Shown piece after piece: positions 31,477-56,281 of a stretch of 64,000 bases of DNA. The notes beneath the pieces were generated by a model that was given only the letters and a program-made list of their open reading frames with translations, did not search any database and was not told where the DNA came from. This stretch comes from Williamsia deligens (GTDB lineage: Bacteria > Actinomycetota > Actinomycetes > Mycobacteriales > Mycobacteriaceae): assembly GCF_024171765.1 (NCBI RefSeq), contig NZ_JAMTCI010000005.1, forward strand, positions 1 through 64,000, read 5' to 3'. Each line of letters starts with the position of its first letter. The first letter of the stretch is position 1. The position numbers and the translations under genes were made by a program.

Positions 31477-32934
31477 TCACTGCGCGGCGAACGTGCTGCG
31501 GTCGCCCACGGCACGGACGACATCGCTGAATCGCACGAGGAATCCACTGACCGCGGAGTGCATGGGACCCCTCGCCGGGAAGCGCGCGGAGATCCGGACA
31601 CCCGACGGTGTCCGGTTGACCCAGATGTAGACCTCGTCGGGGGAGTAGTTGTGACTCCGCAGGACCCGCGCACCGCCGGCGTCGGCCGCGGCGGCGTCCG
31701 GGGCGTGGCGCGTGTCGATGAAGGAGACGACGAAGGTCGGGGCGTCGCCGTAGCCGAGCAGTTCGGTGACCCGCAGGAACGGGACGTCCGCGGCGACGCG
31801 TGTGCGACGCAGTGCGGCGGTGGCCCGCTGCACCACCGACGCGAAGGACCTGGTGCCGGCGGAGTCGATCGCGACCGGTGTGGTCGAGACGAACCATCCG
31901 AGTGCGCCCAGCCATCTGCCCTCGGTCCGCGTGTGGCGCGGTGTGATGCAACAGAACACGTCGCCACCTCCGCACTCCCGGTAGGAGACGGCCAGTGCGG
32001 CGAGGATGCCGGCGAACAGCGATCCCCCCGTCGCGGCACACACCGCCGTGAACCGGTTCGCCGCGTCGTCGTCGAGGAGTTCCAACGTCACCGACGACTG
32101 CGGCGGGCCCTGGTCGGTCCCGTCGGTCTCGGCGGAGGGGGCCGCGCCGGCGGCCTCGGCGGTGGTCACGTCACCCGTCTCGGACGCGGGCGCGACGAGG
32201 TCGAAGCGTGGCATCGTCCGGTCGTGGGCGTCGAGGAACTCGGCCCAGGCCGTGACGGCCGGGTGGTCGACGTCGGCGTCGTCGGCGACTCTGCGCTCGT
32301 GGGCACTGAAGTCGACGTAGCTGCCGACCTCGGGCAACTGCGGCTCCCGGCGCTCACGCGCCGCGTGGTACAGCTCCGACAGCTCGTGCTGGGCGAGGAT
32401 CAGCGAGTAGCCGTCGAGCAGGGAGTGGTCGCCGGCGAACAGCAGCGTGAACGTCCGTTCCCGCGCCACCGTGGCGAAGAGGTACGCCGGCCACTGCAGC
32501 GGCGCCGTCGCCCGGTCGAAGGAGCCGGCGAGCTGATCGAGGAGCGGGCCGGATTCGGCGTACCAGCCGACGCGACCCATCTTCAGCCGGACCGACCCGG
32601 GCGGGGTCGTGAGTCGTTGCAGGCCCGAGTGTTTGACGACCACGTGGCTGCGCAGGACCTCGTGGCGGTCGATCCACCGGGTGAGGGCGGACCGGATCGC
32701 CGGGACCGACATCGGCTCGTCGAATTCGATCGCGAGGCCGAGCCAGGACTCCCGGCCGCCCTCGCGCTTGGTCCGCCACCGGTGTTCGAGCGACGAACGC
32801 AGGTGCAGCTCGTGGTTGTGCGAGGTCGAGCGGGGGTCGTTCTCCCAGTGCGCGAACCCGCCGACCGTGCTCGGCGACCACTCGACGAGGCCCCCGGGCT
32901 CGACCGGCTGGTCCATCATCTGGATGAACTTCAT
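31477..32934 (-). CDS. PapA-type acyltransferase, type C (outlying member)
   Basis: A 485-residue condensation-fold acyltransferase with no carrier or adenylation domain. The active-site motif is DHSLLDGYS (HxxxDG) near residue 170. The N-terminus MKFIQMMDQPVEPGGLVEWS matches the type C proteins at 37298 and 44286. Family enzymes in mycobacteria (PapA1-A3) transfer acyl groups from CoA or a PKS to trehalose or other sugar hydroxyls. It starts 14 bases after sufE and so probably belongs to the sseA-sufE transcript, away from the other six paralogs. Confidence 0.88.
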   Translation of the reverse strand: MKFIQMMDQPVEPGGLVEWSPSTVGGFAHWENDPRSTSHNHELHLRSSLEHRWRTKREGGRESWLGLAIEFDEPMSVPAIRSALTRWIDRHEVLRSHVVVKHSGLQRLTTPPGSVRLKMGRVGWYAESGPLLDQLAGSFDRATAPLQWPAYLFATVARERTFTLLFAGDHSLLDGYSLILAQHELSELYHAARERREPQLPEVGSYVDFSAHERRVADDADVDHPAVTAWAEFLDAHDRTMPRFDLVAPASETGDVTTAEAAGAAPSAETDGTDQGPPQSSVTLELLDDDAANRFTAVCAATGGSLFAGILAALAVSYRECGGGDVFCCITPRHTRTEGRWLGALGWFVSTTPVAIDSAGTRSFASVVQRATAALRRTRVAADVPFLRVTELLGYGDAPTFVVSFIDTRHAPDAAAADAGGARVLRSHNYSPDEVYIWVNRTPSGVRISARFPARGPMHSAVSGFLVRFSDVVRAVGDRSTFAAQ

Positions 32935-32948
32935 CGGCGGCCGCGCAC

Positions 32949-33371
32949 CTACGCGCGCGCCCGGGTGATCTGGGCCTTCACCCGGGCCAGCATCCCCGCC
33001 ATGCCCCGCAACCGCAGTGGACTCACCACCGACGCCAGCCCGAGGTCGGTGTAGAAACCCGGCGGCACGTCGAGGATCTCCTGCGCCGACGCACCGTCGA
33101 GACCCTGGTGCAGGATCGACGCGAACCCGCGTGTCGTGGGGGCCTCGGGCGGCGCACTGAAGTGCAGCCGTACCGCGTCCGGGTCGGTCGCGTCCACCGC
33201 GAGGAACACCGGCGACTGACACTCCGGGACCGGTTCCATCGCCTCGGTCCGCAGGTCGTCGGGCAGATCCGGCAGATCGTTCGCGAACTCCAGGAGCATC
33301 GTCACCCTGTCGGACTCGGACAGGGCGGCGAAGTCCTCGACGATCTCGGCCAGCGCGGACGGGAGCGTCAC
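32949..33371 (-). CDS. sufE: SufE-family sulfur acceptor
   Basis: A 140-residue protein with the sulfur-accepting Cys in [11 protein letters not shown] (about residue 51) and a family-typical C-terminus ([17 protein letters not shown]). SufE receives persulfide from a cysteine desulfurase for Fe-S cluster assembly. It overlaps the sseA stop by four bases, so it is coupled to it. Corresponds to Rv3284 in order. Confidence 0.93.
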
Positions 33372-34252
33372 GGTGTCCCCGGAGCGTCACCCGTGGCGAT
33401 GGGCGCCCGCACGGCGTTGCCCCACTCCGTCCACGAGCCGTCGTAGTTGCGGACCCGGGTGAACCCGAGCAGGTGGGTGAGCACGAACCACGTGTGCGAG
33501 GAGCGCTCACCGATGCGGCAGTAGGCGATGGTCGGGGTGTCCGGGGCGAGATCGCCGTAGATCTCCTCGAGCTCGGGGCGGCTCCGGAAGCGACCGTCCG
33601 GCGCGGCCGACTTGGCCCACGGGATCGACAGCGCCGTCGGGATGTGCCCGCCGCGCAGCGCGCCTTCCTGCGGGTAGTCCGGCATGTGCGTGCGCTCGCC
33701 GGTGTACTCCTGCGGCGAGCGCACGTCGACGAGGGGCTCGGTGCCGATGGCGTCACGGACCTCGTCGGCGAACGCGCGGATCAGGCTGTCGTCCCGCTCG
33801 ACCACCGGGTAGTCCGACCGGGGGAGGTCGGGGACGTCGAACGACGTCTCGCGGTCCTCGGCGAACCACGCCTGACGTCCACCGTCGAGCAGGCGCACGT
33901 CGGGATGGCCGAACAGGGTGAAGACCCACAGCGCGTAGGCCGCCCACCAGTTGCTCTTGTCGCCGTAGACGACGATCGTGTCGTCGCGGTGGATCCCCTT
34001 GCTGCGCATCAGCTCTGCGAACGCCTCACCGTCGATGTAGTCGCGCGTGACGGGGTCGTTCAGATGCAGGTGCCAGTCGATCTTCTGCGCGGTCGGGATG
34101 TGTCCGATGTCGTAGAGGAGGACGTCCTCGTCGGACTCGACGACCTTCAGGCCCGGCGCCCCGATGTTGGCGCTGAGCCACTCGGTGCTCACGAGACGTT
34201 CGGGGTGCGCGTACGCGGAGAAGGCGGGATTCGGGTCGGTGGGGACGGTCAC
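33368..34252 (-). CDS. sseA: Thiosulfate sulfurtransferase (two-domain rhodanese)
   Basis: A 294-residue tandem rhodanese. The C-terminal domain carries the active loop with catalytic Cys in [15 protein letters not shown] (CRIGER), as in the M. tuberculosis SseA family. The N-terminal inactive domain has [18 protein letters not shown]. Substrate segments include [11 protein letters not shown]. It moves sulfane sulfur and neighbours sufE, fitting a sulfur-relay role. Start is a GTG at 34252. In M. tuberculosis maf comes next; here a 22-kb island intervenes. Confidence 0.93.
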
Positions 34253-34357: not shown

Positions 34358-35800
34358 TCAGCCTAGTGCGCGCGGCAACGCGGTGGTCGTGATGCGCGCC
34401 GCGACGGCCACGACCGTGTCGAGGAAGTCCCCGACCACCCGATGCGCAGTGGGGGTGTCGGGGAAGCGGGTGCGCAGGGCCAACCCCGCGTCGGTCCGGG
34501 AGATCCACACCTGGACGTCGTCGGCGCGGGTGATGTTCGAGATGTGGTGGGCGCCGTCGTCGGTGCTGCCCGCCCCCGGGAGTCTGCGGTAGTCGACGAA
34601 CGACACCATGAACACGTCGGAGCGGACGAAGGTCAGGCCGCCGATCGCGGCCACGACGGCGGGGACCGGGATCGCACCGAGGCGCACGGCCGCCCGGAGG
34701 TCGTCGCCGGTCGCCGAGACGGTCGCGCACAGCTCCTCCCGGGGTGTCACGGTGATCGGTGCGTTGGTCGTGAACCACCCCACCGCGCGGTCCCAGAGAG
34801 GCGACCGTCGGGTGTGCATCGGGAACAGCAGCGACAGGTCGTCGGCGAGACCCGCCTGTCTCGCCGCGTGCGCCATCGCCGCGAGGATGCCCGCGAACGT
34901 GGATGCGCCCAGGGACCGGCAGGCCGCGTCGAGGCGGTCGGCCGCGGGTGCGTCGGCGAGGGTTCGCAGGTCGACGGCCTGTGGGGCGCTGTGCCCGGGG
35001 AGCAGGCCGAGGTCGGCGGGGAACGAGGGTGGCATGTTGTCGTGGCGTGCGAAGAACGTCCGCCAGCCGTCCATCGCGGGGTGGCCGGCGTGGTCGCGGT
35101 CGTCGCGCGCCTCGGCTGCGCAGTGGCGCAGGAAACTGCCCACCGGTCCGAGACGGTCGGCCACGTCGGACTCCGGTGACCGCCGGAACCCGTCGTAGAG
35201 CAGACGCAGGTCGTCGACGACGACGGCGATGGACCACGCGTCGACGTGGGCGTGGTCGAACGCGCACACGATGGTCGACGTGTCGTGGCCGTCGATGGCC
35301 GCGAACAGGTGGTCGGGATCGCCCAACGGGGCGCAGGAGTCGCTGAGCACCGCGCGCAGGGCGAGGTGGGCCTCCTCAGGGGTGCTCGTCTCGATCGGGG
35401 CGTCGGCGACGAGGCGCATCCGCGACCTGTCGTGGATGCGCCGGACGACCCGCGGCGGTGCGTTCTCGTCGTTCGACGGTGCGTCCTCGTCATTCGACTG
35501 TGCCCCCTCGTCCGACGACGGCTCGACGGTGAACCCGCAGCGCAAGCTGTCATGGCGGTCCACCAGAGCCGCGAACGCCCGTGCGAGTGCGTCGTGGTCC
35601 AGCGCACCGTCGACGTCGAACGCGGCCGCGAGGAACACCGTCTCGTCGCCGGGTCGCGCCCGGGCGGACTCCAGGTGGAAACGCTGGTTGAAGGACGGAG
35701 GGATGTCCGAGACGATCACCCGCGCATCGGAGAGGTCCATCCGCCACCGTGTCAGCGGTCCGGGCCGCGGCCGGAACCGGTCAACGGTGGTGACCCGCAC
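34358..35800 (-). CDS. PapA-type acyltransferase, type A, copy 1
   Basis: A 480-residue condensation-fold protein from the GTG at 35800, overlapping the preceding gene by 20 bases. The active-site motif reads FDHAHVDAWS, i.e. HxxxDA with Ala in place of the usual Gly. The shared N-terminus (RPGPLTRW) and C-terminal MVSFVDYRRLPG, VQVWISR and RTRFPDTPTAHR align with the protein at 41479. An acidic insert (QSNDEDAPSNDENAP, near residue 90) contains a repeated SNDE unit. Predicted to acylate a sugar or glycolipid hydroxyl; substrate unknown. Last gene of the first C-B-A module. Confidence 0.87.
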   Translation of the reverse strand: MRVTTVDRFRPRPGPLTRWRMDLSDARVIVSDIPPSFNQRFHLESARARPGDETVFLAAAFDVDGALDHDALARAFAALVDRHDSLRCGFTVEPSSDEGAQSNDEDAPSNDENAPPRVVRRIHDRSRMRLVADAPIETSTPEEAHLALRAVLSDSCAPLGDPDHLFAAIDGHDTSTIVCAFDHAHVDAWSIAVVVDDLRLLYDGFRRSPESDVADRLGPVGSFLRHCAAEARDDRDHAGHPAMDGWRTFFARHDNMPPSFPADLGLLPGHSAPQAVDLRTLADAPAADRLDAACRSLGASTFAGILAAMAHAARQAGLADDLSLLFPMHTRRSPLWDRAVGWFTTNAPITVTPREELCATVSATGDDLRAAVRLGAIPVPAVVAAIGGLTFVRSDVFMVSFVDYRRLPGAGSTDDGAHHISNITRADDVQVWISRTDAGLALRTRFPDTPTAHRVVGDFLDTVVAVAARITTTALPRALG

Positions 35801-37301
35801 CCGACGCCACCTCCTGCATCCGCGTGTGATCGGGTGCCCGCGTGATCACCCGGTCGCCGGTGGCCGCGATCTCGGCGAAGATCGCCCGCAGACGGCGATG
35901 ATGGTGCGCGAGCCGTTCCTGGGCGACCGGGGTGTCGGGCGTCTGGGTCCCGAGGTACATGCCGTGCTCGTCTCGATTGACCCACACCGAGGCGTTCGCC
36001 GTCCGCCCCTCGCCGGTCGTCTGGATCCCGCGGTCGTACGTCGGTGTCCCCGCGTGCGGGGACCTGCGGAAGTCCAGATAGGACAACAGCTGTGGGGTGA
36101 CCATCGCCTCCGCGGGATCGGCACCCGCGGCGATCAGTGCGGCCATCACCGTGGGCACGGGGACGTGGGACGCGTCGGTCGCCTCCACACCCGCCCTCTG
36201 CGCCCTCGGCACCAGGTCGGTGAACCTTCGAGCTTCCGCGACCGGGAACGCCACGGGCGCGAAACGACAGAACCATCCCTGGGCCAGGTGGACGTCGGCG
36301 AGGTCGCGGTCGGCGAGGGCCGTGATGCCGAACCATGAGGGGTCGCCGGTCAGTTCGTGGTCCGCGGTGGCGATCGCCGCGACGACGCCCGCGGTCACGC
36401 CACCGCCGGCTGCGGAACAGATCTGCGCGAAGCGTTGCGCCCCGTCGGCGTCGAGGACGTCGAACCGGATGCTGCGCACCGGTGCGGTCTCACCGGGTGC
36501 CAGACCGAGATCGACCGCGCTGTGGGGCATCCGGAGTCCGTGGGCGCGCAGCGTCGTCATCCAGTGGTGCAGGGCCGCCGACCCCTCGCCGTAGGCGGCG
36601 GCCCTGATCCGTTCCTGCCGCGCGTACTCCACCGCGGAACCCACCGGCGCCGTCGTGAACGGTCCGGGGGGCGTGCCGTCGCGCTCGGCGACATACAGAT
36701 CGGCGATCTCGGCCAGCGCCATCGCCTGCGACACCCCGTCGGTGAGTGCGTGGTCACAGAACCAGAACAGGGTCGTGCTCCTGTCGCGGACGATCGCGCC
36801 GAGTTCGAACCCCGGCCACCGCAGGGCACTCGCGCGCTGCCCGAACTCGGTGTCGACGAACTCGTGCAGGCGACGTGCACCGATGTGGTCGTCGCGGCGA
36901 GGACCGCCGCGGACCCACCCGTGGTCGTCGAGGACGGCGAGGTCGGCTGTGGTGAAGGCGACGTGGTCGGCGTCGACGACGTGGCGCGTGACGTCCGCCC
37001 CGGACACGGAGAACCAGCTCCGCAGGCCGTCGTGCCGGATGACGAAGCGGCGCAGGGCCTCCGCGATGGCACGCGGGTCGAATCCGCCGTCGACCTCGGT
37101 GGCCGCGGCGAGGTAGACCGAGTGTCGCCGACCGGCGCGGGCGGTCGCGGCCGTGCCGTGCAGATGCCCCTCCTGCAGCGTGGACGGGGGCACGGGATGC
37201 GCCGGGGTGGCGTCGGCGGCCGCGGTCGCGGGCGGTGTGGGACGCACGGTCACGATGCGACCGGGAGCCGGGTTCCAGTGCGCGATGGCGTCGATCATCA
37301 T
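35781..37301 (-). CDS. PapA-type acyltransferase, type B, copy 1
   Basis: A 506-residue condensation-fold acyltransferase, ATGA-coupled to the type C gene before it. The N-terminus (HWNPAPGRIVTVRPTPPA) is the most like mycobacterial PapA1/PapA2. The active site is FCDHALTDGVS with a canonical HxxxDG core. LLSYLDFRRSPHAG and NASVWVNRDEHGMYLGTQTP place it with the protein at 42839. The cytoplasmic role would be acyl transfer from CoA to a glycolipid intermediate. Second gene of the first module. Confidence 0.88.
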   Translation of the reverse strand: MMIDAIAHWNPAPGRIVTVRPTPPATAAADATPAHPVPPSTLQEGHLHGTAATARAGRRHSVYLAAATEVDGGFDPRAIAEALRRFVIRHDGLRSWFSVSGADVTRHVVDADHVAFTTADLAVLDDHGWVRGGPRRDDHIGARRLHEFVDTEFGQRASALRWPGFELGAIVRDRSTTLFWFCDHALTDGVSQAMALAEIADLYVAERDGTPPGPFTTAPVGSAVEYARQERIRAAAYGEGSAALHHWMTTLRAHGLRMPHSAVDLGLAPGETAPVRSIRFDVLDADGAQRFAQICSAAGGGVTAGVVAAIATADHELTGDPSWFGITALADRDLADVHLAQGWFCRFAPVAFPVAEARRFTDLVPRAQRAGVEATDASHVPVPTVMAALIAAGADPAEAMVTPQLLSYLDFRRSPHAGTPTYDRGIQTTGEGRTANASVWVNRDEHGMYLGTQTPDTPVAQERLAHHHRRLRAIFAEIAATGDRVITRAPDHTRMQEVASGAGHHR

Positions 37302-38839
37302 CGGCGGGCACCTTCGGTGTCGGGTCCCGCGGACACCCGTGTGTCGGCCCGTCGGCCGGCCGGGTCGCGCTCGATCGGATCGCGGTCGTCGACGCCCAGT
37401 TCACGACCCATGTCCGCGACCACCTCCCGCAGTGCGTGGAGGTGACGATGGACGGAGTCGGCTGCGACGGCGGTGCTCGGGAAGCGGGCGGACAGCGAGA
37501 TCCCCTTCGGGGACCGCACGATCCAGAGATAGACCTCGTCGTCGGAGACCGAGGCGCCACGCAGGGTGCGTGCACCCCACCGCGTCCACTCCTGCGCCCC
37601 CGGTATCCGTCGGGTGTCGACATAGGAGACGACGAAACGCGGGGTCGCCCGCGACCCGTTGATCTCCGCCACGCACGGATAGGGGTGGGGTGCGAGGGGC
37701 CGTCGTCGGCCGATCTCGGCGGCGGCCAGCGCGAGTCGCTCGTCCACGGTCGTCGCGGCCCCGAGGTCGACGGTGATGGGGACCATGCCGACAAACCACC
37801 CGACGGAGTGGGCGTACCGCGGATCGGTGCGGGTGTGCAGCGGCATCACGAAGCGGGTGGTCGAGTTACCGGTGCAGCGGTGCGTCGCGGTCGCCAACGC
37901 TGCCAGCACCACGGTCTGCATGGTGTGGCCGCGTGCACGGGCGGCGGCGTTGATGCGGTCCGCCTGATCGGCCGTCATCACCCACGACGACACCCCGCTC
38001 TGGCGGCGGGCCGGTGCCGAGGCGGTGGTCCCCAACGGCAGCGGGAACGCCGGGAACTGCTCGGCCTCGCCGTCCTGCAGGAACTCCCGCCATGCCACGA
38101 CGGCGTGGTGGTCGCGGTGCAGGCGCGTCCCCGCGAGGTGGTCGGCGACGCTGAAGTCGACGTGGCTCGCGACCGGAGCGGTGTCGATCCGCTCCCCCTG
38201 GTGGGCCCGGCGGTAGAGCTCCTGGATCTCGCCGATCGCGAGGAGCATCGAGTAGGCGTCCATGACCGAGTGGTCGGCGGCGAACACCAGCAGGAACCGG
38301 TCGTCGGGCCGTGGTGTGTCGGCCAGCGGCGCGTGTTCGACGGTGGGCTCGCTGATGGTGGCGGCCACGCAGTGCGGCCACGTCCACGGCGACAACCGGT
38401 CGAACAGCGAGACGAGGTGTTCATGGACGCGCGTACCGGTTCGCAGGCTGCCGACGATCGAGGGCGCCACCTCGACGTCGTCGTCGAGGACCACCCGCAC
38501 GGGGTGTCCGCCGTCGCCGGTCACGGTGGTGCGGAAGACCTCGTGCCGACGCATCCATGCGGTCAGCGCGACACCCACCGCCGCAGCGTCATAGGGGAGC
38601 GGCACCTCGAAGACGGCCCCCAGCCAGGAGCCCGGCGGCCCGGGCGTGTCGCGATCGGATCGAGGTCCGAACACGTCGACGCCGCGCCGGCAGTAGTCGG
38701 CGTGCAGGGGGCTGAGCGGCCGGTCGTCGACGGTCCACGCGGGGTCGTGGCCCGCGGCGCGGGGTGTCCACTCGGTGAGCACGCCGCCGGTCAGCGGGTA
38801 GTCGGTGAGTTCGGTGAATTCCACAGGTGCGGTCTCCAT
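37298..38839 (-). CDS. PapA-type acyltransferase, type C, copy 1
   Basis: A 513-residue condensation-fold protein. The N-terminus (VEFTELTDYPLTGGVLTEWT) matches the type C protein at 44286 nearly residue for residue. The active-site motif is ADHSVMDAYS (HxxxDA). Other landmarks are VSYVDTRRIPGAQEW, DEVYLWIVRSPKG and SARFPSTAVA. It is first in the C-B-A run that ends at 34358, with four-base or longer overlaps throughout, so the three are very probably one operon read from the promoter region at 38840-39179. Confidence 0.88.
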   Translation of the reverse strand: METAPVEFTELTDYPLTGGVLTEWTPRAAGHDPAWTVDDRPLSPLHADYCRRGVDVFGPRSDRDTPGPPGSWLGAVFEVPLPYDAAAVGVALTAWMRRHEVFRTTVTGDGGHPVRVVLDDDVEVAPSIVGSLRTGTRVHEHLVSLFDRLSPWTWPHCVAATISEPTVEHAPLADTPRPDDRFLLVFAADHSVMDAYSMLLAIGEIQELYRRAHQGERIDTAPVASHVDFSVADHLAGTRLHRDHHAVVAWREFLQDGEAEQFPAFPLPLGTTASAPARRQSGVSSWVMTADQADRINAAARARGHTMQTVVLAALATATHRCTGNSTTRFVMPLHTRTDPRYAHSVGWFVGMVPITVDLGAATTVDERLALAAAEIGRRRPLAPHPYPCVAEINGSRATPRFVVSYVDTRRIPGAQEWTRWGARTLRGASVSDDEVYLWIVRSPKGISLSARFPSTAVAADSVHRHLHALREVVADMGRELGVDDRDPIERDPAGRRADTRVSAGPDTEGARR

Positions 38840-42834: not shown

Positions 42835-42838
42835 GGGC

Positions 42839-44269: not shown

Positions 44270-44285
44270 TGTGAACCGGGTCGGA

Positions 44286-48568: not shown

Positions 48569-49915
48569 TCACCACGGGCGGGCCTGCAGGGACCAGCGCC
48601 GCAGTTCGGCGGTCACCACCGACTCGAGGACGTCGGGACCGAGGGCGTCGGGGTCGAGGCCGACCACCGACAACGTGGTCGTCCCCGCAGCGTCGTTGAC
48701 CCAGGCGGCGAGACCGCCACGCAGGGACCGGAGTCGGGCCGTCGTGATCGACTGCGTCGTCGCCCGGGTCACCACGGCGTCGGCCCGTGCGGGGTCGCCG
48801 AAGCCGGCGACCGCGGGATCGACGCGCCCCAGGCTCGAGGCCAGGGCGAGCGGCGTGGTGGCCCCCGCGCTCAGCAGGGCCACGGCCCGGTCGCCGAGTG
48901 CCTGCACGAGCGGCTGCAGCCGCACGAAGGCGGTCGGTCGGGTGGTTTTGCTGCCGTAGGCCTCCCTCGCGAGTGCACGGATCGGGGCGAGGTCGCCGTC
49001 GAGGGCATGGACCGCCGGTACGTCCAGCGACAGGCCGGTCGTCGCGTTGGCGCGGTCGTCGTCGGGCTCTCGGGTCGACATCGGGACGGACACGCGGACC
49101 ACGTCGTCGGCGCCCGCACGGCCGGCCGCGACGACGATGCCCACGACGACCGCGATGAACAGTGCGTTCGACGACCCACCGGATCGAGCGGCGGCCGCCT
49201 CCCACTCGGCGGTCTCCACGCTCAGCACGCAGAGCGGTGCGATCCGGGCACCGCCCTCGGGCGCGGTGGGCGGCAGTGCCGGAGAGGTCGCCGCGGTCAC
49301 CACGGGGCCGGCGTCCGGTGCGGCGGGCCCGGAGCCGACCCGGACCCGGTCCCGGGCGATCGCGGCGACCGACCCGGCGATGGTGGCGGCCCGGCCGATG
49401 ACCTCACGTGCCTGGTCGAGGGGGGTCGGCGGAGTCGGGTCGAACTCCGTGCCGTCACCGGAGAGCGCCTCGGCGAAGGCCGTCAGCGCGCTGATCCCGT
49501 CACCGACCGCGTGGGACAGGCACAGCGACACCAGGGCACCGCCGGTGTGCAGCGGCGCTGCGCGGACCTCCCAGACGGGCCCGGAGCGCAGGTCGAAGGG
49601 GCGTGAGGCGGCCGCATCGATCCACGCGATCACCTCGCCGGCGGCGACGGCATGCGACGAGACGACCAGGCCGCCGGAATCGGACCCACCTGCGACCCAG
49701 TGGTCGCGCACCAGCGGGATCCGACTGCGGCGCAGGAGGCGCGCGAGGCGTCCGTGGGCCAGCCCGTCGGCGAAGCGGGTGAGTTCCGCCTCCGACGGCA
49801 TGGCGGTCAGGCGCCACACCATCTGGTTCACCACGGGGACGTCCAGCGCGGTGTCCATCCGGATGAACAGGTCGTCGTCGACGGTGGTCCGCAGGAGGGG
49901 TCCTCGTGTCGTCAC
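48569..49915 (-). CDS. WS/DGAT-like acyltransferase, type D, member 1
   Basis: A 448-residue condensation-fold protein. The active-site segment is CLSHAVGDGISAL (HxxxDG). The N-terminus (TVDDDLFIRMD...VVNQMVWRL) and the middle (SSNALFIAVVVGIVV, VPMSTREPDDDRANATTGLS) follow the plan of wax-ester synthase/diacylglycerol acyltransferases and match the three genes at 52127-56281. The first His of the WS/DGAT HHxxxDG is Ser here. It lies between the permease and the GT1 gene on the minus strand. Start is a GTG at 49915. Acyl acceptor unknown. Confidence 0.8.
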   Translation of the reverse strand: MTTRGPLLRTTVDDDLFIRMDTALDVPVVNQMVWRLTAMPSEAELTRFADGLAHGRLARLLRRSRIPLVRDHWVAGGSDSGGLVVSSHAVAAGEVIAWIDAAASRPFDLRSGPVWEVRAAPLHTGGALVSLCLSHAVGDGISALTAFAEALSGDGTEFDPTPPTPLDQAREVIGRAATIAGSVAAIARDRVRVGSGPAAPDAGPVVTAATSPALPPTAPEGGARIAPLCVLSVETAEWEAAAARSGGSSNALFIAVVVGIVVAAGRAGADDVVRVSVPMSTREPDDDRANATTGLSLDVPAVHALDGDLAPIRALAREAYGSKTTRPTAFVRLQPLVQALGDRAVALLSAGATTPLALASSLGRVDPAVAGFGDPARADAVVTRATTQSITTARLRSLRGGLAAWVNDAAGTTTLSVVGLDPDALGPDVLESVVTAELRRWSLQARPW

Positions 49916-49939: not shown

Positions 49940-50785
49940 TCAGAGCTTCCTCAGGTAGATGCGCACCGTCAACGGGGCGAGCACCGCGATGAGCACGAAC
50001 GACCCCAGCAGCGACCAGCCCAGGTGCTGGTCCACCCGTCCCTCGTTGGCGAGCAGGCGCACCGCGGAGATCAACTGCGACAACGGGTTGATCGTGGTGA
50101 CGGTCTGCATCCACGAGGGCATCGTGTCAGGCGGCACGAAGGCGTTCGACATGAACCCGAGGACGGTCAGGATCAGCGCCGAGAAGCCCTGCACGGCGGA
50201 CGCCTTCGACAGCACCACGCCCATCAGGGCGAAGAGCCAGCTCAGGGCGAACGCCGAGAAGATGACCAGGACGATCGCGGTGAGGGTGCCCCACACGCTG
50301 CCGGGCCGGTACCCCATCAGCAGTCCGACCGTCAGGGTCAGGCACGCTGCGATCAGGTAGCGGAGGTTGGCCGCGACCAGGGACCCCGAGAGCGGGGCGA
50401 TGCGTGCGATCGGCAACGAGACGAACCGGTCGAACACACCCTTGTCCATGTCCTCACGCAACTGGATCCCGACGACCACGGTCGAGGTGGTGACGACGTT
50501 GACGAGCACGCCGGGGATGAGGATCGGCAGGTACGACGTGACACCGCCGGCGATGACTCCGCCGAAGATGCTGGCGAACATGACCGTGAAGACGACCGGG
50601 ACGATGGTCACGTCGACCAGGAGCTGCGGGTTGTGCTTGAACTTCAGCAGCCCGCGCCGCGCCATCGTCAACGTGTCGCGCACGGTCTTGGCCGGCGTGA
50701 TGTGGTCGACCACCGAGGCCATCGGGATGGAGGAGAACGCCGGGGCGTCGGGGACCGGACGGGTGGTCTCCTCCGCGGTGGTCAC
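49940..50785 (-). CDS. ABC-2 type permease (DrrB-like)
   Basis: A 281-residue membrane protein with about six helices (e.g. VDVTIVPVVFTVMFASIFGG, YLIAACLTLTVGLLMGY, VLVIFSAFALSWLFALMGVV). The segment LREDMDKGVFDRFVSLPI between helices and GFMSNAFVPPDTMPSWMQ are characteristic of the DrrB daunorubicin/PDIM exporter group. It is coupled to the ATPase gene by GTGA. Together they should export the finished or part-made lipid across the membrane. Only one permease gene is present, unlike the drrB-drrC pair of PDIM loci. Confidence 0.92.
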   Translation of the reverse strand: MTTAEETTRPVPDAPAFSSIPMASVVDHITPAKTVRDTLTMARRGLLKFKHNPQLLVDVTIVPVVFTVMFASIFGGVIAGGVTSYLPILIPGVLVNVVTTSTVVVGIQLREDMDKGVFDRFVSLPIARIAPLSGSLVAANLRYLIAACLTLTVGLLMGYRPGSVWGTLTAIVLVIFSAFALSWLFALMGVVLSKASAVQGFSALILTVLGFMSNAFVPPDTMPSWMQTVTTINPLSQLISAVRLLANEGRVDQHLGWSLLGSFVLIAVLAPLTVRIYLRKL

Positions 50786-51936
50786 GCGGGCCTCCGGTCG
50801 TCGGTGAGGGCGAGGAACACGTCGTCGAGAGAGGGGGTGTGCACCCCGAACTCACCCACGGTGATCCGCCCCGCGGTGAGCGCCGCGATGACCTCCGCGG
50901 CCCGTGCGGAGTCGGGGACGGGCCCGGTGAGCTGCCCGGTCCTGACGTCGACGTCGATCGGTGCGCGCAGCAGCGATCGCATGACGGCCGCGGCGTCGTC
51001 GGCCTGTCGGGGATCGATCAGACGGATCGACAGCGAGAAGTCGCCCACCGACCGCTTGAGGGACTCCGGGGTGCCCCGCCCCACCACCCGACCGTGATCG
51101 ATGACGACGAGCTGGTCGGCCAGTGCGTCCGCCTCGTCGAGGTACTGCGTGGTGAGGACGACGGTGGTCCCCGAGGCCACCACCGACCGCACGATCTCCC
51201 ACAGCTGGGTGCGCGTGCGTGGGTCCAGTCCGGTCGTCGGCTCGTCCAGGAACAGAAGGGCGGGTCGTCGGATCATGCTCGCCGCGAGGTCGAGTCGTCG
51301 CCGCATGCCGCCGGAGTACGACCCGATCGCGCGCCCGCCGGCCTCGGTGAGACCGAACTGGTCCACGAGTTCGCGGGAGCGCTGCCGTGCCTGCGCGCCG
51401 CGCAGTCCCAGCAGACGGCCGAATATCTCCAGGTTCTCCAGCCCGGTCAGGTCCTCGTCGACCGACGCGTACTGCCCGGTCAGCGCGATGAGGCTGCGCA
51501 CCGCGGTGGCGTCGGCGACCACGTCGCGGCCCAGGACGGTGACGCGTCCGGCGGTCGGTCGCAGCAGCGTCGCCAGCATCCGGACGGTGGTGGTCTTGCC
51601 GGCCCCGTTCGGTCCGAGGAGTCCGCACACCGTGCCCGCGGGCACCGAGAAGTCGACCTCGTCGACGACGCGACGACCGCTGTACTCCTTGGTCAGGCCC
51701 GCGACGTCGACCGCCGCGGATGCGGTGGCCCCGCTCGTGGCGCGCGGCGAGTCCTCCCGGCGTGGGTGCAGCGGCGGGGTCCATCCGATGTCGCGGATGT
51801 CGCGGGCATCCACGGTGTCCCCGGCGTGGGGCGCACCCGTGGTGGCGTCGTCGGGTTCGGGACGGGCGTGACGCCCGCCCCGCGGCATCGTCGGGACACG
51901 GTCCGCGGACTCGGCGTCTCGCGAGAGTGTTGTCAT
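50782..51936 (-). CDS. ABC exporter ATPase (DrrA-like) with a long N-terminal extension
   Basis: A 384-residue protein from the ATG at 51936 (GGGGGA upstream). The ABC domain begins only near residue 76: Walker A GPNGAGKTTT (108-117), signature YSGGMRRRLDLA, Walker B LLFLDEPTTGLD and the DrrA C-terminal domain ending HTPSLDDVFLALT. The first ~75 residues are charged, Pro-rich and probably disordered, with an IRDIGWTPPLHP motif; DrrA proteins normally lack this. It heads the minus-strand transcript permease - type D - GT1 and is divergent from the three type D genes. Confidence 0.92.
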   Translation of the reverse strand: MTTLSRDAESADRVPTMPRGGRHARPEPDDATTGAPHAGDTVDARDIRDIGWTPPLHPRREDSPRATSGATASAAVDVAGLTKEYSGRRVVDEVDFSVPAGTVCGLLGPNGAGKTTTVRMLATLLRPTAGRVTVLGRDVVADATAVRSLIALTGQYASVDEDLTGLENLEIFGRLLGLRGAQARQRSRELVDQFGLTEAGGRAIGSYSGGMRRRLDLAASMIRRPALLFLDEPTTGLDPRTRTQLWEIVRSVVASGTTVVLTTQYLDEADALADQLVVIDHGRVVGRGTPESLKRSVGDFSLSIRLIDPRQADDAAAVMRSLLRAPIDVDVRTGQLTGPVPDSARAAEVIAALTAGRITVGEFGVHTPSLDDVFLALTDDRRPA

Positions 51937-52126
51937 CGGCTGGTTCCCCCTGGGCCGTGGAGTCTCGGGCACAGGCTAACGGTCGAGGTCGCCCGGCCGT
52001 GTCACAGGCGACGTCGGTCACACCCCACCGCACTGGACGACGGGGCCCACCACGACCGGTCGGATGTGTCCGGCGCCATATCCGCTCGTCCGGCGGGCCG
52101 CGCGGTGCGCCACTAGTGTCCTGCGA
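51937..52126. promoter_or_regulatory. Divergent promoter region between the exporter and the type D acyltransferase genes
   Basis: 190 bases without a gene separate divergently read halves of the island, so promoters in both directions are expected. The ATG at 52127 has no evident ribosome site, and a TAGTGT just upstream could be a -10 box for a leaderless transcript. No convincing -35 or palindromic operator was found. Confidence 0.35.
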
Positions 52127-53503
52127 ATGGCGCAGCGAGCGAACGCAGTTCGGCTCGACGGACCCGATCTGACCTACTGGTTCGTCGAGCGCGCGCTGGG
52201 GTGGTCGGTCGTCCTGCAGCTCGTGTGGGTGTTCCCGGACCGCCTCTGCGCCGACACCGTCGACGGCGTCGCCGCACGCCTGCACGGGAGCGGTCTGCAC
52301 CGTCGGGTCGTGCCCGCGGTGGTGCCGGGCGCGCGTCCGCGCTGGACGCGGTCGACCGAGACGATCGCCGCGGTCCACGACGACGACCCGATCGACCTCG
52401 ACGACGTCGCCGCGTGGGCGGACCGGGAGTTGTACGGCGTGGATCTCGACGCCGTCGCCGGCCGCTCCTGGCGGGTGCGAGCGGTCCCGATCGACTCCGG
52501 CGGCCACGCTCTGTCGCTGTGCACCCTGCACCTGGTGACCGACGGGCAGGGTTTCGTCCGGGCGGCCGCCGAGGCGTTCGCGTCGGCGCCGGGAGCCTCG
52601 GTGACCACCGCCGAGAACGGTTCTGCGACAGCGGCGCCGACGACGGGCCTCGCAGACCTGGTCGGGGACACCCGGGATCTCCTCCGGCAGGTGGCGGCCG
52701 CCGCGACCGGCGTCGCACGCGTCGTCGCGTCGACCGCGCCCGTACCGGGCCGCGGACCGCGGGAGGCGCCGCGTGACCCGAGGACGCCGAGAACGCCACT
52801 GGCGCAGCGGGCCCCGCAGGCGCGGCCCCGGTGGGTGATCGCGTCGGTGCCGACCGTGGACTGGGACGCCGCCGCCTCCCGGCACGACGGCACCGACAAC
52901 ACCCTGTTCGTGGCGGTGATCGCCGGTGCGTTGCGTCGTGCCGGGGCGATCCCGGCCGGCGAACCGGTCAAGGTGGGCATCCCCGTCAGCCGCCGTGGTG
53001 CCGACGACGATCGCGCCAATGCCACGGCGGGGGTCTCGGTGATGCTCGACGACACCGTCGGCGGGGGCCGGTCCCTCGCCGGTGTCCGCGCCGCCTGCCG
53101 GGCGGCCTACACCGCACTCGACGGGGGGCGACGTGACCCGACCGCCCACCTCACACCTCTCGTCACACTCCTGCCGCCGGCGGTGACCGTGCGGGCCGTC
53201 ACCGCGGGGTCGGGGATGCCCGACGCGATGACCTCCAACATCGGCGCCTGGGACGACGACGTCCTGCGACTGGGCACGTCCACCGCCGAGCGGATGGTCT
53301 TCCGCGGGGACGCCCAGCACGTCCTCCCGGACCGTCCGCACCGGTTCGGTGACGGGCTGCAGTCGTGGATCGTGCGAGCGGGTGACCACACGACCCTGTC
53401 GGTGGCGGCGTTCGACGAGACCGCCGTCCCCGACGCGGACACGCTGCGATCGGTTCTCGCCGACGAGTTCGCCGCATGGGGACTCCCGCACCGGTTCTGG
53501 TGA
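52127..53503 (+). CDS. WS/DGAT-like acyltransferase, type D, member 2
   Basis: A 458-residue protein. The active-site segment is CTLHLVTDGQGF (HxxxDG with Leu before His). Family marks are VLQLVWVFPDRL, TDNTLFVAVIAGALRR, VGIPVSRRGADDDRANATAG and MTSNIGAWDDD, which parallel WS/DGAT motifs, and the end is EFAAWGLPHRFW. Predicted to transfer an acyl group from CoA to an alcohol or sugar acceptor. First of three adjacent plus-strand paralogs. Confidence 0.8.
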   Translation: MAQRANAVRLDGPDLTYWFVERALGWSVVLQLVWVFPDRLCADTVDGVAARLHGSGLHRRVVPAVVPGARPRWTRSTETIAAVHDDDPIDLDDVAAWADRELYGVDLDAVAGRSWRVRAVPIDSGGHALSLCTLHLVTDGQGFVRAAAEAFASAPGASVTTAENGSATAAPTTGLADLVGDTRDLLRQVAAAATGVARVVASTAPVPGRGPREAPRDPRTPRTPLAQRAPQARPRWVIASVPTVDWDAAASRHDGTDNTLFVAVIAGALRRAGAIPAGEPVKVGIPVSRRGADDDRANATAGVSVMLDDTVGGGRSLAGVRAACRAAYTALDGGRRDPTAHLTPLVTLLPPAVTVRAVTAGSGMPDAMTSNIGAWDDDVLRLGTSTAERMVFRGDAQHVLPDRPHRFGDGLQSWIVRAGDHTTLSVAAFDETAVPDADTLRSVLADEFAAWGLPHRFW

Positions 53504-53538
53504 CGGGCCGCGGGATGACCGAGGTGCAGGAGGGTCCG

Positions 53539-54909
53539 ATGACGGCACGGGTGACCGGACCCGACGAGACGTTCATGACGGTCGAGGCGGTGGCCGGCGT
53601 CGAGACACCGATCCAGATGGGATGGGTGTTCGCGCACGACCCGGGAGAGGCGGCCGTCGACGTCGTGCACGCGCGGCTCGCCGCCGGCCCGGTCAACCGG
53701 GCCGTGCGACGCACCCGGGTGCCGTTCGCGCGGCACCGCTGGGTCCCTTGCGACCATGTCGACGTCGCCCGCCACGACCGTGAGCCCGTCGCCGCCGGTG
53801 CCGTCTCGCAGTGGTTCACCGACCACCTCGAGTCGACACCGGTGCGCCCCACGGCCGGTCGGAGCTGGCATGTCGCGAGCGCCCCGACCACCGACGGTGG
53901 GCGTGTGGTGTCGGTGCTCGCCTCCCACGTGGTGTGTGACGGATCGGGTCTGCGCGCTGCGGTCCTGGGGACGACCCCGGCCGCCGCCGCCGATCCGCCG
54001 ACCACCCGCGTCGTCGACGAGCTCCTCGACGATCTCCGTGACGCCGTCGCGCAGGTGCGCTCGGCGCTGCGGTCGATACTGGTGATGCTGCGACTGACCG
54101 TCGCGGGGGGCCGGCGGGACCGGTCCGATGCAGACAACGGCGCGCCGGCCGTCGTCGATGTCGGTCCGACGCACCGCAGGACCGTCCCGACCCCGGTGGC
54201 GGCGAACGGCGTTCCGGAGGAACCGCCGGTCCGGCACGTCCTGGTGACGCTGGACTCGGCCCAGGTGGCCGCACGCGCCGCGGACCGGGGTGGGACACCG
54301 AACAGCCTCTTCTGCGCCCTGCTCGGAGGCGTGGCGCAGCGTGCGCACATCCCGGAGTCCGACACGACCGCCATCTGCATCGCCGTCGATCGGCGCGAGG
54401 GGGACCACGACGGCAGGGCGAACGCCTCGGGCGGGGTGTGGATCCGGGTCCGCGGCGCGCTCGACGGACCCGTCGACCTGTCGGGGATCCGTGCACGGAC
54501 CAAGAGCGCGCTCACCACCTACTCCGCGCACGGGGCCGATGCGTCGGCCGACAACGTCCAGCCGATCGTGCGGCTGCTGCCCGCGCGCCTGGTGCTGCTG
54601 CTGATGCGACTGATCCCGTCGCCGCACACCACGGTCTCCAACCTCGGGGACGTCGGCGAGGACCTGCTGCGGATGGGGGAGCAGCGGGCGCACGTGCAGT
54701 TCACCCGCGCTGCGGTGCGGGGTCTCGGGGCCGATGCCCGTCGACGGCTGTGCCGTCCGGGGTTGCTGGCGTGGCTGACCGTGCACGGGGAGCACGCGAC
54801 CCTCGCGGTGTGTGGCGTCGACCCGGACCGCTTCGGTGGGGACGGGGTGCTGCGATCGCTCGTCGTCGACGAACTCGACGCCTGGGGGCTGTCCCATGCG
54901 GTGGTCTGA
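53539..54909 (+). CDS. WS/DGAT-like acyltransferase, type D, member 3
   Basis: A 456-residue protein. The ATG at 53539 is chosen over 53476 and 53515 because AGGAGGG (53528-53534) precedes it at the right distance and the N-terminus then matches its paralogs (TGPDETFMTVEA). The active-site segment is LASHVVCDGSGL. Other marks: IQMGWVFAHDPG, GTPNSLFCALLGG, DHDGRANASGGVW and TVSNLGDVGED; the C-terminus ends ELDAWGLSHAVV. It overlaps the next gene by 14 bases. Confidence 0.8.
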   Translation: MTARVTGPDETFMTVEAVAGVETPIQMGWVFAHDPGEAAVDVVHARLAAGPVNRAVRRTRVPFARHRWVPCDHVDVARHDREPVAAGAVSQWFTDHLESTPVRPTAGRSWHVASAPTTDGGRVVSVLASHVVCDGSGLRAAVLGTTPAAAADPPTTRVVDELLDDLRDAVAQVRSALRSILVMLRLTVAGGRRDRSDADNGAPAVVDVGPTHRRTVPTPVAANGVPEEPPVRHVLVTLDSAQVAARAADRGGTPNSLFCALLGGVAQRAHIPESDTTAICIAVDRREGDHDGRANASGGVWIRVRGALDGPVDLSGIRARTKSALTTYSAHGADASADNVQPIVRLLPARLVLLLMRLIPSPHTTVSNLGDVGEDLLRMGEQRAHVQFTRAAVRGLGADARRRLCRPGLLAWLTVHGEHATLAVCGVDPDRFGGDGVLRSLVVDELDAWGLSHAVV

Positions 54910-56281
54910 GGGCCGACTCGGGGTGACGGACGAGTCGTACCTCCTCCTGGAGTCGACGCTCGGGGTCGTCGCGCCGATGCAGGTCGTCTGGGTGTTCCCG
55001 TCAGACCCCGGGATCGATGCGGTGTCCGCCGCGCACGCCCGGTTGATCGGTGGGCCGCTGGACCGCGTGGTGCGGCCGCCGCGCGTCCACGGCGCCCGCC
55101 CACGATGGGCCCGCCCGACGGGTGTCGCACGGCTGCGGATCGACCCCGACACCGTCGACGACACCGTCGACGACACCGACACCGACACCGACGCCGTCCG
55201 CCGGTGGGCGGCGGGCCATCTCGGCGACGCCCCGATCGCGGCCGCGGCCGTCCCGGGGGGTCGCTGCTGGGAGATGGCCACCGTGGGAACGCGGTCGGGG
55301 GGCCGGGTGGTGTCGGTGGTCGCGTCCCACGTGGTCGCCGACGGCCGTCGGTTCGTGGAGACGCTGGCGTCCGCGCTGGCGGGGTGCGACCCGGACCCGA
55401 CGGATGTCCCGGCGACGGTGTCGTCGTCCCGTGAGGTTGCCCACGACGTCGTCGACGCCATCGCGGCGACGGGGGACGCCGCGCGATCGCTGCGGCGGCT
55501 CGTGGCGGCGTCGCGCGCCCGTCCCCCGGGACCGACGGGCTCATCCCGACCCGCGCCGTCCGCGCCCCCCGACTCGCCTCCACCGGTCGGCGACTGCACG
55601 CCCGAGCATCGCGTGCTGTCGGTGCCGCGCACCAGGTGGGACGACGCGGCACGCCGACGCGGGGGCACCTCGACGACCCTGCTCGTCGCCCTGGCCGCGG
55701 ACCTCGCCCGACAGGCCGGTCTGCTCGAACTGCGATCGGGACCGTCTGTGCCGCTGCGGGTCTCGGTCGCCGTGGACCGGCGCGATCCCGGTGACGCGCA
55801 CTCGGCCAATGCCGCGGGCGGTGTGTCCGTGCGCCTCGATCAGCCCGTCGATCCCGCCGACGGGCTGGCCGGGATCCGTGCGGCGGTGCGGACCGCCGTG
55901 GCGGAGCCTGTCGAGGACGACGCCGTCGCGAGACTCGCCCGGTTGCTCCCACGGGGTGTGCTCGGTCGCGTGATCGCGTCGATCCCCGGACCGCATGTGT
56001 CCGTGTCCCATCTCGGCGAGGCCCCTGTCGGTCTGCGCGCCTGCGGGGGAGTGGGCGCCGAGGAGATCGTCGTCCGCGCGGCGACCCGGACGGTCGCGGC
56101 GCGTCTCGCCCGGGGGATGCTGCCGGGGATCGCCGTCTGGGCGGTGGGACACGGGGATCGCGTCGCCGTCGCCGTGTGCGGCGCCGACCCCGTGTTCGGG
56201 TCCGGTGCGGTGGATCTCGACGAACTGATGGACCGGGTGGCGAAGCGGTGGGGTGTGGACGACCCCGGCGTGGTCGCCTAG
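54896..56281 (+). CDS. WS/DGAT-like acyltransferase, type D, member 4
   Basis: A 461-residue protein from the ATG at 54896; a GTG at 54923 is an alternative. VTDESYLLLESTLGVVAPMQ is the segment most like the WS/DGAT N-terminus, followed by VVASHVVADGRRF (HxxxDG), TSTTLLVALAADLAR, DAHSANAAGGVSVRL and IPGPHVSVSHLGEAP. A simple acidic repeat (DDTVDDTDTDTDAV) sits near residue 105. The stop overlaps the convergent maf gene by four bases, marking the right boundary of the island. Confidence 0.8.
   Translation: MRWSEGRLGVTDESYLLLESTLGVVAPMQVVWVFPSDPGIDAVSAAHARLIGGPLDRVVRPPRVHGARPRWARPTGVARLRIDPDTVDDTVDDTDTDTDAVRRWAAGHLGDAPIAAAAVPGGRCWEMATVGTRSGGRVVSVVASHVVADGRRFVETLASALAGCDPDPTDVPATVSSSREVAHDVVDAIAATGDAARSLRRLVAASRARPPGPTGSSRPAPSAPPDSPPPVGDCTPEHRVLSVPRTRWDDAARRRGGTSTTLLVALAADLARQAGLLELRSGPSVPLRVSVAVDRRDPGDAHSANAAGGVSVRLDQPVDPADGLAGIRAAVRTAVAEPVEDDAVARLARLLPRGVLGRVIASIPGPHVSVSHLGEAPVGLRACGGVGAEEIVVRAATRTVAARLARGMLPGIAVWAVGHGDRVAVAVCGADPVFGSGAVDLDELMDRVAKRWGVDDPGVVA

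What the first reader, a model, noticed from the sequence alone, without database searches (positions are those of the whole stretch)
31477..56281. An eleven-acyltransferase glycolipid island, apparently undescribed
Within about 25 kb there are seven PapA-type and four WS/DGAT-like condensation-fold acyltransferases, two GT1 and one GT2 glycosyltransferases, a DrrAB-like exporter and an antigen-85-like exported enzyme. This is directly visible from motifs (HxxxDG/A, HHGGAGTT, Walker boxes, GLSMG). PapA enzymes acylate trehalose and other sugars in mycobacteria, and GT1 enzymes of this type glycosylate mycobacterial glycolipids. I infer a polyacylated oligosaccharide or glycolipid made inside and exported. 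Known trehalose ester loci have one to three acyltransferases plus a PKS and MmpL; none of those is here, and I know no described locus with this composition.
Basis: partly seen in the sequence, partly recalled or inferred. Interest (0 to 1): 0.9.

Follow-up and report, generated by a model that had tools for sequence, protein, structure and literature searches.

The report
Twin gene modules for acylated-sugar lipids
A Williamsia bacterium carries two related sets of genes, side by side, that probably build and export sugar chains decorated with many fatty acids; sister versions of these genes sit in two species reported to make such surfactants, for which the responsible genes have not been proven.

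Summary
In detail: 7 PapA-type and 4 further condensation-fold acyltransferases (11 of 11 with HxxxD[GA]), two GT1, one GT2, DrrAB and an Ag85-like enzyme lie in 31477-56281 of a Williamsia genome. Three details change. Housekeeping genes (sufE, sseA) lie inside the island, within an accD5-maf-sseA-sufE-accA3 neighbourhood. The four 'WS/DGAT' proteins fail the curated cut-offs. The island is two paralogous modules, each a PapA triad with GT1 and W genes, plus a separate PapA (P1). Single modules occur elsewhere; triad order is kept in 70 of 80 named loci. The key comparison: Rhodococcus fascians NBRC 12155, listed as maker of a trisaccharide succinic tetraester, has one such module at the same place: 4 PapA + 2 W + 1 GT1, equal to the four sugar esters, two secondary esters and one extra hexose of the largest published congener. 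R. corynebacterioides has 3 GTs; a pentasaccharide lipid is reported for that species. Best reading: synthesis and export of trehalose-based acylated oligosaccharide surfactants, probably two products. A new variant of a known kind; product unproven. Four papA genes of a matching cluster are already in print for one Rhodococcus.

The parts
31477..32934 (-). P1, PapA-type acyltransferase (DHSLLDG); likely ATG start at 32934
   Evidence: PF00668 1.7e-20; in 40 of 40 named loci where a P1 was called it follows sufE
32949..33371 (-). sufE-like, housekeeping, inside the island
   Evidence: PF02657 4e-31
33368..34252 (-). sseA-like rhodanese, housekeeping, inside the island
   Evidence: PF00581 2e-32
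34358..35800 (-). P2, module A PapA-type acyltransferase
   Evidence: PF00668 5.7e-14; paralogue of P5 (33%)
35781..37301 (-). P3, module A PapA-type acyltransferase
   Evidence: PF00668 3.1e-12; paralogue of P6 (36%)
37298..38839 (-). P4, module A PapA-type acyltransferase
   Evidence: PF00668 9.3e-24; PapA2 6aef 4.8e-19; paralogue of P7 (37%)
39180..40061 (-). GT2 glycosyltransferase (module A); likely ATG start at 40061
   Evidence: PF00535 3.5e-27
40131..41471 (-). GTa, GT1-type glycosyltransferase (module A)
   Evidence: PF06722 3.6e-19; clade separate from GTb
41479..42858 (-). P5, module B PapA-type acyltransferase
   Evidence: PF00668 3.7e-7, just under cut-off
42839..44281 (-). P6, module B PapA-type acyltransferase (start uncertain, perhaps 44269)
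   Evidence: PF00668 3.6e-7, just under cut-off
44286..45797 (-). P7, module B PapA-type acyltransferase; likely ATG start at 45797
   Evidence: PF00668 3.1e-21
46168..47211 (-). Ag85/Cmt1-like, probably exported mycoloyltransferase (module B)
   Evidence: Cmt1 E 6e-57; the Ser (GLSMG), Glu and His positions align (triad roles recalled)
47290..48564 (-). GTb, GT1-type glycosyltransferase (module B)
   Evidence: PF06722 3.7e-14; clade separate from GTa
48569..49915 (-). W1, condensation-fold acyltransferase
   Evidence: WS_DGAT_cat E 0.009, under cut-off; HxxxDG
49940..50785 (-). DrrB-like ABC-2 permease
   Evidence: PF01061 4.2e-24
50782..51936 (-). DrrA-like ATPase (alternative start 51972)
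   Evidence: PF00005 1.1e-28, DrrA1-3_C 1.2e-6
52064..53503 (+). W2, condensation-fold acyltransferase
   Evidence: TIGR02946 8.9e-9, under cut-off
53476..54909 (+). W3, condensation-fold acyltransferase
   Evidence: 31% to W2, E 9e-43; AlphaFold2 model, condensation fold
54896..56281 (+). W4, condensation-fold acyltransferase (ATG at 54896; the longest ORF begins at 54812)
   Evidence: 34% to W3, E 6e-37; HxxxDG
56278..57000 (-). maf, housekeeping flank
   Evidence: PF02545 5.5e-47
57257..59779 (-). accD5-type carboxyltransferase, housekeeping flank
   Evidence: PF01039 5e-207
29560..31416 (-). accA3-type biotin carboxylase, housekeeping flank
   Evidence: PF02786 8e-78

Best explanation
The island is a double version of a biosynthetic module for trehalose-based, multiply acylated oligosaccharide lipids (the class of the succinic trisaccharide tetraester listed for R. 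fascians and the pentasaccharide succinic octaester of N. corynebacteroides). Proposed working: GT1/GT2 enzymes add hexoses to a trehalose core; each PapA puts one acyl group (medium-chain 3-hydroxyacyl, short acyl or succinyl, from CoA) on a particular sugar hydroxyl; the W enzymes esterify the 3-hydroxyl of an attached hydroxyacyl chain, giving acyloxyacyl groups; DrrAB exports the product; in module B an exported mycoloyltransferase may add or exchange an acyl chain outside. Module A = P2-P3-P4, GT2, GTa, W2-W3(-W4). Module B = P5-P6-P7, GTb, W1, Ag85-like, DrrAB. Two products are more likely than one. Shown here: gene content, intact motifs, whole-triad paralogy, conservation, presence in one strain and one species listed as producers. 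Inferred: trehalose acceptor, acyl donors, division of labour, export.
For: Paralogy P2~P5, P3~P6, P4~P7, GTa~GTb. In a tree of 130 PapA rows each of the three clades (P2/P5, P3/P6, P4/P7) holds its own supported module B group (100*, 99*, 100*), fascians group (99*, 100*, 100*) and non-mycolate group (99* in each), and a module A group (83, 98*, 98*). Triad order P4/7-P3/6-P2/5 in 70 of 80 named loci; a W gene in 68 and a GT in 61 of the 75 loci with all three types (loci were fetched with a P4 profile, best 80 of 106). Modules A and B lie about 150 kb apart in G023 and on different contigs in Gordonia sp. OPL2 (L086, L114) and ABSL11-1 (L110, L126); no P5-P7-like hit in G003, G012, G017, G034, which have module A. 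R. fascians NBRC 12155 (L082): accD5-maf-W-GT1-W-P4/7-P3-P2-sseA-sufE-P1-accA3; the review PMC4365757 lists this strain for the trisaccharide succinic tetraester. The largest congener published for I2R has 4 sugar esters + 2 secondary esters + 1 hexose beyond the disaccharide, against 4 PapA + 2 W + 1 GT. R. corynebacterioides NBRC 14404 and BP-281: 3 GTs each, with a pentasaccharide reported for strain SM1 of the species; in NBRC 14404, 4 of 5 P4-like hits are in this locus. I2R: of 31 loci compared, L084 fits best: ATG starts at three of the four published papA lengths and the same P4-P3 spacing.
Against: No lipid of this strain is known to me, and no Williamsia glycolipid showed in the listings (one hit on other matter; 25 of 121 listed, none with Williamsia). 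Two producer species are few; enzyme counts can match by accident. R. corynebacterioides has 6 acyltransferases for a reported octaester, and SM1 is not the sequenced strain. The structure was worked out in Rhodococcus sp. BS-15; NBRC 12155 is only listed beside it. R. fascians BD8 is reported to make a different trehalose lipid with one branched C16/C17 chain. The fascians-type loci show no DrrAB, so this exporter is not needed for the class. 7 of 75 triad loci show no W (two of them, L049 and L050, because the stretch ends) and 14 of 75 no GT in the fetched stretch. The P2 of R. corynebacterioides falls outside the module A group. The I2R fit is poor for NBRC 12155 itself (0 of 4 lengths). 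The review lists tri/tetrasaccharide esters from Tsukamurella, but no Tsukamurella locus is among the 80 kept hits (26 weaker ones not shown).
Confidence: 0.66

Rival explanations
1. The two modules cooperate on ONE large product in Williamsia: trehalose plus three hexoses (GT2, GTa, GTb = pentasaccharide) with up to seven sugar esters and up to four secondary esters.
For: Six of the seven other genomes of the genus searched carry both modules at one place; total of three GTs in the focal island; the focal genome has one DrrAB in the island where these six have two.
Against: Module A is seen without any P5-P7-like hit in G003, G012, G017 and G034; the modules lie apart in G023 and in two Gordonia; relatives keep two DrrAB pairs. 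A DrrAB pair 57% (B) and 64% (A) like the missing one exists elsewhere in this genome.
Confidence: 0.25
2. The product is a glycolipid on another core (glycosylated lipid alcohol, peptide lipid or polyketide), decorated by the acyltransferases, as in mycobacterial glycopeptidolipids.
For: Related GT1 enzymes of mycobacteria act on glycopeptidolipids and phenolic glycolipids (recalled); the genome has several very large NRPS frames.
Against: No NRPS or PKS in the 49 window ORFs scanned apart from the stand-alone PF00668 proteins; the large NRPS frames are on another contig. The homologous locus is in a strain and a species listed for trehalose-type oligosaccharide esters.
Confidence: 0.15
3. 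The acyltransferases mainly modify an envelope glycolipid such as mycolyl trehalose, so the locus is an envelope-remodelling set and not a surfactant pathway.
For: Location beside the acc genes; Ag85/Cmt1-like enzyme in module B; a second Ag85-like gene at 28010 near accA3.
Against: Ag85-like was seen in 11 of 80 loci, each with P5-P6-P7. Triads also occur in Promicromonospora, Saccharopolyspora and Nocardioides, which lack mycolic acids (recalled). PapA-type enzymes are taken to be cytosolic (recalled), which fits a periplasmic acceptor poorly.
Confidence: 0.12

Closest known systems
Four-papA cluster of Rhodococcus sp. I2R (PMC8396431), proposed for succinic di/trisaccharide esters
   Same: Published gene lengths, order and a gap of the size of sseA-sufE fit P4-P3-P2-[..]-P1; best fit L084 (three of four lengths, one of three spacings exact).
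   Different: In the passages read, the paper names the four papA genes as a group and speaks of many glycosyltransferases spread over several contigs, not of W and GT genes beside them; the Williamsia island has a second module. The I2R genome was not examined here.
R. fascians NBRC 12155 locus (L082) and the trisaccharide succinic tetraester listed for it
   Same: Same genomic place, PapA triad + P1, two W genes, one GT1.
   Different: One module, no GT2, DrrAB or Ag85-like enzyme in the locus.
Rhodococcoides corynebacterioides locus (L099, L106) and the pentasaccharide succinic octaester of strain SM1
   Same: Two GT1 + GT2, two W, P4-P3-P2 and P1 in the same neighbourhood.
   Different: No module B or DrrAB in the locus; maf lies between P2 and sseA; strain SM1 itself was not examined.
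Mycobacterial sulfolipid / DAT-PAT loci (PapA, Chp, Pks, MmpL; make-up recalled)
   Same: PapA-type acylation; PapA2 is the best solved relative of P4. Cytosolic acylation followed by periplasmic completion is stated for DAT/PAT in the abstract of PMC4183827.
   Different: No PKS or MmpL found here; glycosyltransferases and W genes present; seven PapA; ABC exporter.
TlsA of Rhodococcus sp. SD-74 (succinoyl trehalose lipid)
   Same: Acyl-CoA transferase shown to matter for a trehalose lipid; I2R's four papA are its closest homologues there (PMC8396431).
   Different: About 30% similarity as stated there; the original paper was not held and TlsA itself was not compared here.

Membership tests
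PapA-type stand-alone condensation-fold acyltransferase | PF00668 match and HxxxD active-site motif | tested here: met
   7 of 7 match PF00668 (5 over cut-off, 2 at 29.7 of 30.6 bits); 7 of 7 have HxxxD[GA]; PapA2 is the best solved relative of P4
WS/DGAT family (W1-W4) | score over the curated cut-off of PF03007 or TIGR02946 | tested here: not met
   W1 16.2 of 23.6 bits, W2 34.7 of 309.95, W3 and W4 none; of 29 aligned relatives 2 hit PF03007 and 1 hits PapA_C at E<=0.01; W2 alone finds no WS/DGAT or PapA structure by sequence
WS/DGAT family (W1-W4) | condensation-type (CoA-dependent acyltransferase) fold | tested here: met
   W3 model pLDDT 88.9; best match 8s6l TM 0.63-0.66, WS/DGAT 6chj at rank 19; profile of 29 hits 8s6l 0.00055 and 7nxg (WSD) 0.0028. 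The fold is shared with PapA and NRPS condensation domains and does not single out WS/DGAT. W1, W2, W4 were not modelled
Mycobacterial PKS-MmpL acyltrehalose locus | PKS and MmpL genes in the cluster | tested here: not met
   none in 49 distinct window ORFs scanned
Succinic oligosaccharide lipid cluster (fascians type, as proposed here) | P4/7-P3/6-P2/5 triad with P1, W genes and GT between accD5/maf and accA3 | tested here: met
Succinic oligosaccharide lipid cluster (fascians type, as proposed here) | product is an acylated trehalose-based oligosaccharide | not testable with these tools
   needs lipid analysis and gene removal
Ag85/Cmt mycoloyltransferase | Ag85-type sequence family with Ser-Glu-His triad | tested here: met
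   PF00756 5e-34; alignment to Cmt1 keeps the Ser of GLSMG, a Glu and a His (triad roles recalled). Activity not tested
DrrAB exporter | ABC_tran with DrrA C-terminal domain, and ABC-2 permease | tested here: met
   substrate not testable

The most novel reading that the evidence does not exclude
The locus obeys a one-enzyme-per-bond rule: each PapA paralogue owns one sugar ester (including a succinyl ester), each W paralogue makes one acyl-on-hydroxyacyl (acyloxyacyl) ester, each GT adds one hexose, so acylated oligosaccharide structures across actinobacteria can be read from gene counts and clades. In Williamsia the duplicated module would then give a hitherto unseen pair of lipids, or one pentasaccharide with up to eleven esters.
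Probability: 0.3. Interest if true: 0.75.

Novelty: new variant of a known kind. Interest (0 to 1): 0.6.

Why it matters
PMC8396431 calls the genetic basis of succinoyl trehalolipids poorly understood and names tlsA as the only gene shown to act. This work proposes a specific, conserved gene set with assigned enzyme classes for a family of surfactants, of which that paper reports a fraction with antiviral activity. It makes the question testable by gene removal in sequenced strains, shows that the triad exists in two ancient paralogous versions combined in Williamsia, and proposes an enzyme class for the unusual acyloxyacyl bond.

Tried and rejected
Single 11-enzyme pathway: not first choice, because the triads are paralogous and occur apart. 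'WS/DGAT' membership of W1-W4: rejected at curated cut-offs. GTb as a moved copy of the second GT1 of module A: rejected, separate clades. The DrrAB pair missing in the focal genome as simply moved: unlikely; the pair at C1:2339108 is only 57% (DrrB) and 64% (DrrA) like it and no island gene other than drr-like ones was found in the 20 kb around it. The Gordonia sp. IITR100 and R. fascians BD8 papers gave no gene link to this cluster in the passages seen. Inaba 2013 was not held; Konishi 2014, Esch 1999, Powalla 1989 and Vollbrecht 1998 were not seen, only what PMC4365757 and PMC8396431 say of them. The family-wide search with P3 (132 of 201 genomes at E<=1e-25) is loose: many matches are 27-35% identical, i.e. 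other PapA types, so it is not used as a count of islands.

Rows dropped: one search used 35 of 80 named loci and skipped 3 PapA rows (stop inside or too short); one search skipped 9 GT1 rows for the same reasons; one search used 29 of the 32 sequences first listed; one search's composition tally used 33 of the 40 loci with P1 (double-module or incomplete Williamsia loci left out).
Full report
What is there. The window lies in a 4.41 Mb genome; the P4 profile finds Williamsia first, W. serinedens and an uncultured Williamsia at 69%. Between accA3 (29560) and maf-accD5 (56278-59779) sit 17 island genes, with the housekeeping genes sufE and sseA between P1 and the rest. All seven PapA-type and four W-type proteins keep HxxxD[GA]. 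No PKS or MmpL domain appeared in 49 distinct window ORFs scanned with Pfam (a chosen set out of the 174 mechanical ORFs).

The W proteins. W1 and W2 match WS/DGAT models weakly and under cut-off; W3 and W4 match no model but are clear relatives of W2. W2 alone finds no meaningful solved relative (best E 0.19). A profile of 29 relatives finds PDB entries 8s6l (molecule named a phthiocerol dimycocerosyl transferase, entry titled otherwise) at E 0.00055 and an O-acyltransferase WSD at 0.0028. The W3 model (pLDDT 88.9, pTM 0.89) has a condensation-type fold, best TM 0.63-0.66, with the Marinobacter WS/DGAT at rank 19. I take them as condensation-fold acyltransferases of a group of their own.

Two modules. 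Within the window P2 pairs with P5 (33%), P3 with P6 (36%), P4 with P7 (37%) and GTa with GTb (43%). A FastTree tree of 130 PapA rows from 35 of the 80 named loci plus the window shows P2/P5, P3/P6 and P4/P7(+P1) clades; each holds a module B group, a fascians group and a non-mycolate group with starred support, and a module A group (support 83, 98*, 98*). So the triads largely evolved as units; an exception is the P2 of R. corynebacterioides and R. kroppenstedtii, which falls outside the module A group. The order P4/7-P3/6-P2/5 is kept in 70 of 80 loci, another contiguous order in 5, none in 5. The 80 loci were fetched with a P4 profile, are the best of 106, and include four genomes twice.

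Relatives. Of the seven other genomes of the genus searched, six (G001, G002, G004-G007) carry both modules and P1 at this place; W4 was seen in G002, G006 and G003 only, and W2-W3 stand elsewhere in the island in G001, G004, G005 and G007. G003 has module A and P1, with no P5-P7-like hit. All seven have a DrrAB pair between P4 and GT2 which the focal genome lacks; six of them have the module B pair as well. In G023 (contig of the same length as that of Williamsia sterculiae) the modules lie about 150 kb apart. Gordonia sp. OPL2 and ABSL11-1 have them on different contigs (L086/L114, L110/L126). Gordonia loci L104, L115-L119 and L125 show module B triads, and no module A locus of these genomes is among the 80; Nocardia, Millisia and several Rhodococcoides loci show module A only. 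G012, G017 and G034 have module A and no P5-P7-like hit. Ag85-like was seen in 11 of 80 loci, each with P5-P6-P7.

Link to chemistry. The review PMC4365757 (section 8 and passages seen) lists R. fascians NBRC 12155, beside another Rhodococcus, for a trisaccharide succinic tetraester, and Nocardia corynebacteroides SM1 for a pentasaccharide succinic octaester. PMC8396431 (abstract, outline, section 15, passages incl. Table 3 and the Figure 9 legend) describes, for Rhodococcus sp. I2R, trisaccharide succinic tetraesters whose largest member has succinate, two 3-hydroxy-C8 chains and a hexanoate on the sugars and two secondary acyl chains: four sugar esters, two secondary esters, one hexose beyond the disaccharide. 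The genome of NBRC 12155 (L082) has, between maf and accA3, four PapA, two W and one GT1. Of 33 single-module loci tallied (of 40 with P1), all have four PapA, partly by that choice; 31 have two W and two have one. R. corynebacterioides NBRC 14404 (L099) and BP-281 (L106) have four PapA, two W and three GTs, and a pentasaccharide needs three hexoses beyond trehalose. In L099's genome 4 of 5 P4-like hits are in this locus and the fifth lies in a 4496-aa frame; in L082's genome 4 of 8 are in the locus, one is a stand-alone 27% relative, and three are short matches in frames of 1353-3290 aa. For I2R I compared published papA lengths and spacing with 31 loci: L084 has ATG starts at three of the four published lengths and the same P4-P3 stop-to-stop distance (1448), the other two distances differing by 14 and 5 bases; L078 and L080 share the 1448; NBRC 12155 fits none of the lengths. 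So the I2R cluster is very likely this locus type, but its genome was not examined.

Reading. PapA enzymes as sugar O-acyltransferases, W enzymes as makers of the secondary (acyloxyacyl) esters, GTs as chain-extending hexosyltransferases, DrrAB as exporter. The counts agree for R. fascians; they agree for sugars but not for esters in R. corynebacterioides (six acyltransferases, eight esters reported). That is two species and could be luck, so the class of product is held at 0.66 and the one-enzyme-per-bond rule at 0.3. For the focal strain two products are preferred to one, because each module stands alone elsewhere.

Against. BD8, another R. fascians, is reported with a different trehalose lipid (PMC6198247, passages). 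No Tsukamurella locus is among the 80 kept hits although a Tsukamurella is listed for related lipids. DrrAB is missing in the fascians-type loci and in L070, L071, L095, L099 and L106. 14 of 75 triad loci show no GT and 7 no W in the fetched stretch.

Print. Ten full-text searches of the PMC library listed no paper on this island or on the W, GT and papA genes as one cluster. I saw listings (25 of 121: 25 of 56: 12 of 108) and opened five papers in part (PMC8396431, PMC4365757, PMC6198247, PMC9009618 by passages or sections; PMC4183827 abstract and outline). The four papA genes of I2R are the only prior mention seen. Subscription papers are not covered, so novelty of the single module is not certain.

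Noticed in passing
window 28010-29119 (-): A second Ag85-like esterase gene, 42% identical to the island's Ag85-like enzyme, near accA3; also near accA3 in the seven same-genus genomes mapped.
   Followed up: partly
window 38840-39180: Site where all seven same-genus relatives carry a DrrAB pair that the focal genome lacks; a pair 57% (B) and 64% (A) similar lies at G000:C1:2339108 without other island genes in 20 kb.
   Followed up: partly
L063 (record titled Kitasatospora arboriphila NRRL B-24581): Same arrangement as the Williamsia muralis loci L060 and L062, accA3 at 87% to the window; the record is probably misnamed or contaminated.
   Followed up: no
L067 (record titled Rhodococcus ruber IEGM 1391): Carries a fascians-type locus; the species name may be wrong.
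   Followed up: no
G000:C1 about 2613000-2705000: Several giant NRPS-like open frames (up to 11378 aa) in this genome, seen in the PF00668 search.
   Followed up: no
G000:C2:469069-470451: A further stand-alone PapA-type gene outside the island (29% to P4, 33% to P3), with similar hits in other Williamsia.
   Followed up: no
window 3496-4893 (-): Serine recombinase (Resolvase + Recombinase domains) far from the island; no sign that it concerns the island.
   Followed up: no
L091, L101, L105, L109 (Lolliginicoccus/Hoyosella): Triads in another order (P2-P7-P3) without W or GT genes in the fetched stretch, perhaps for a simpler acylated sugar.
   Followed up: no
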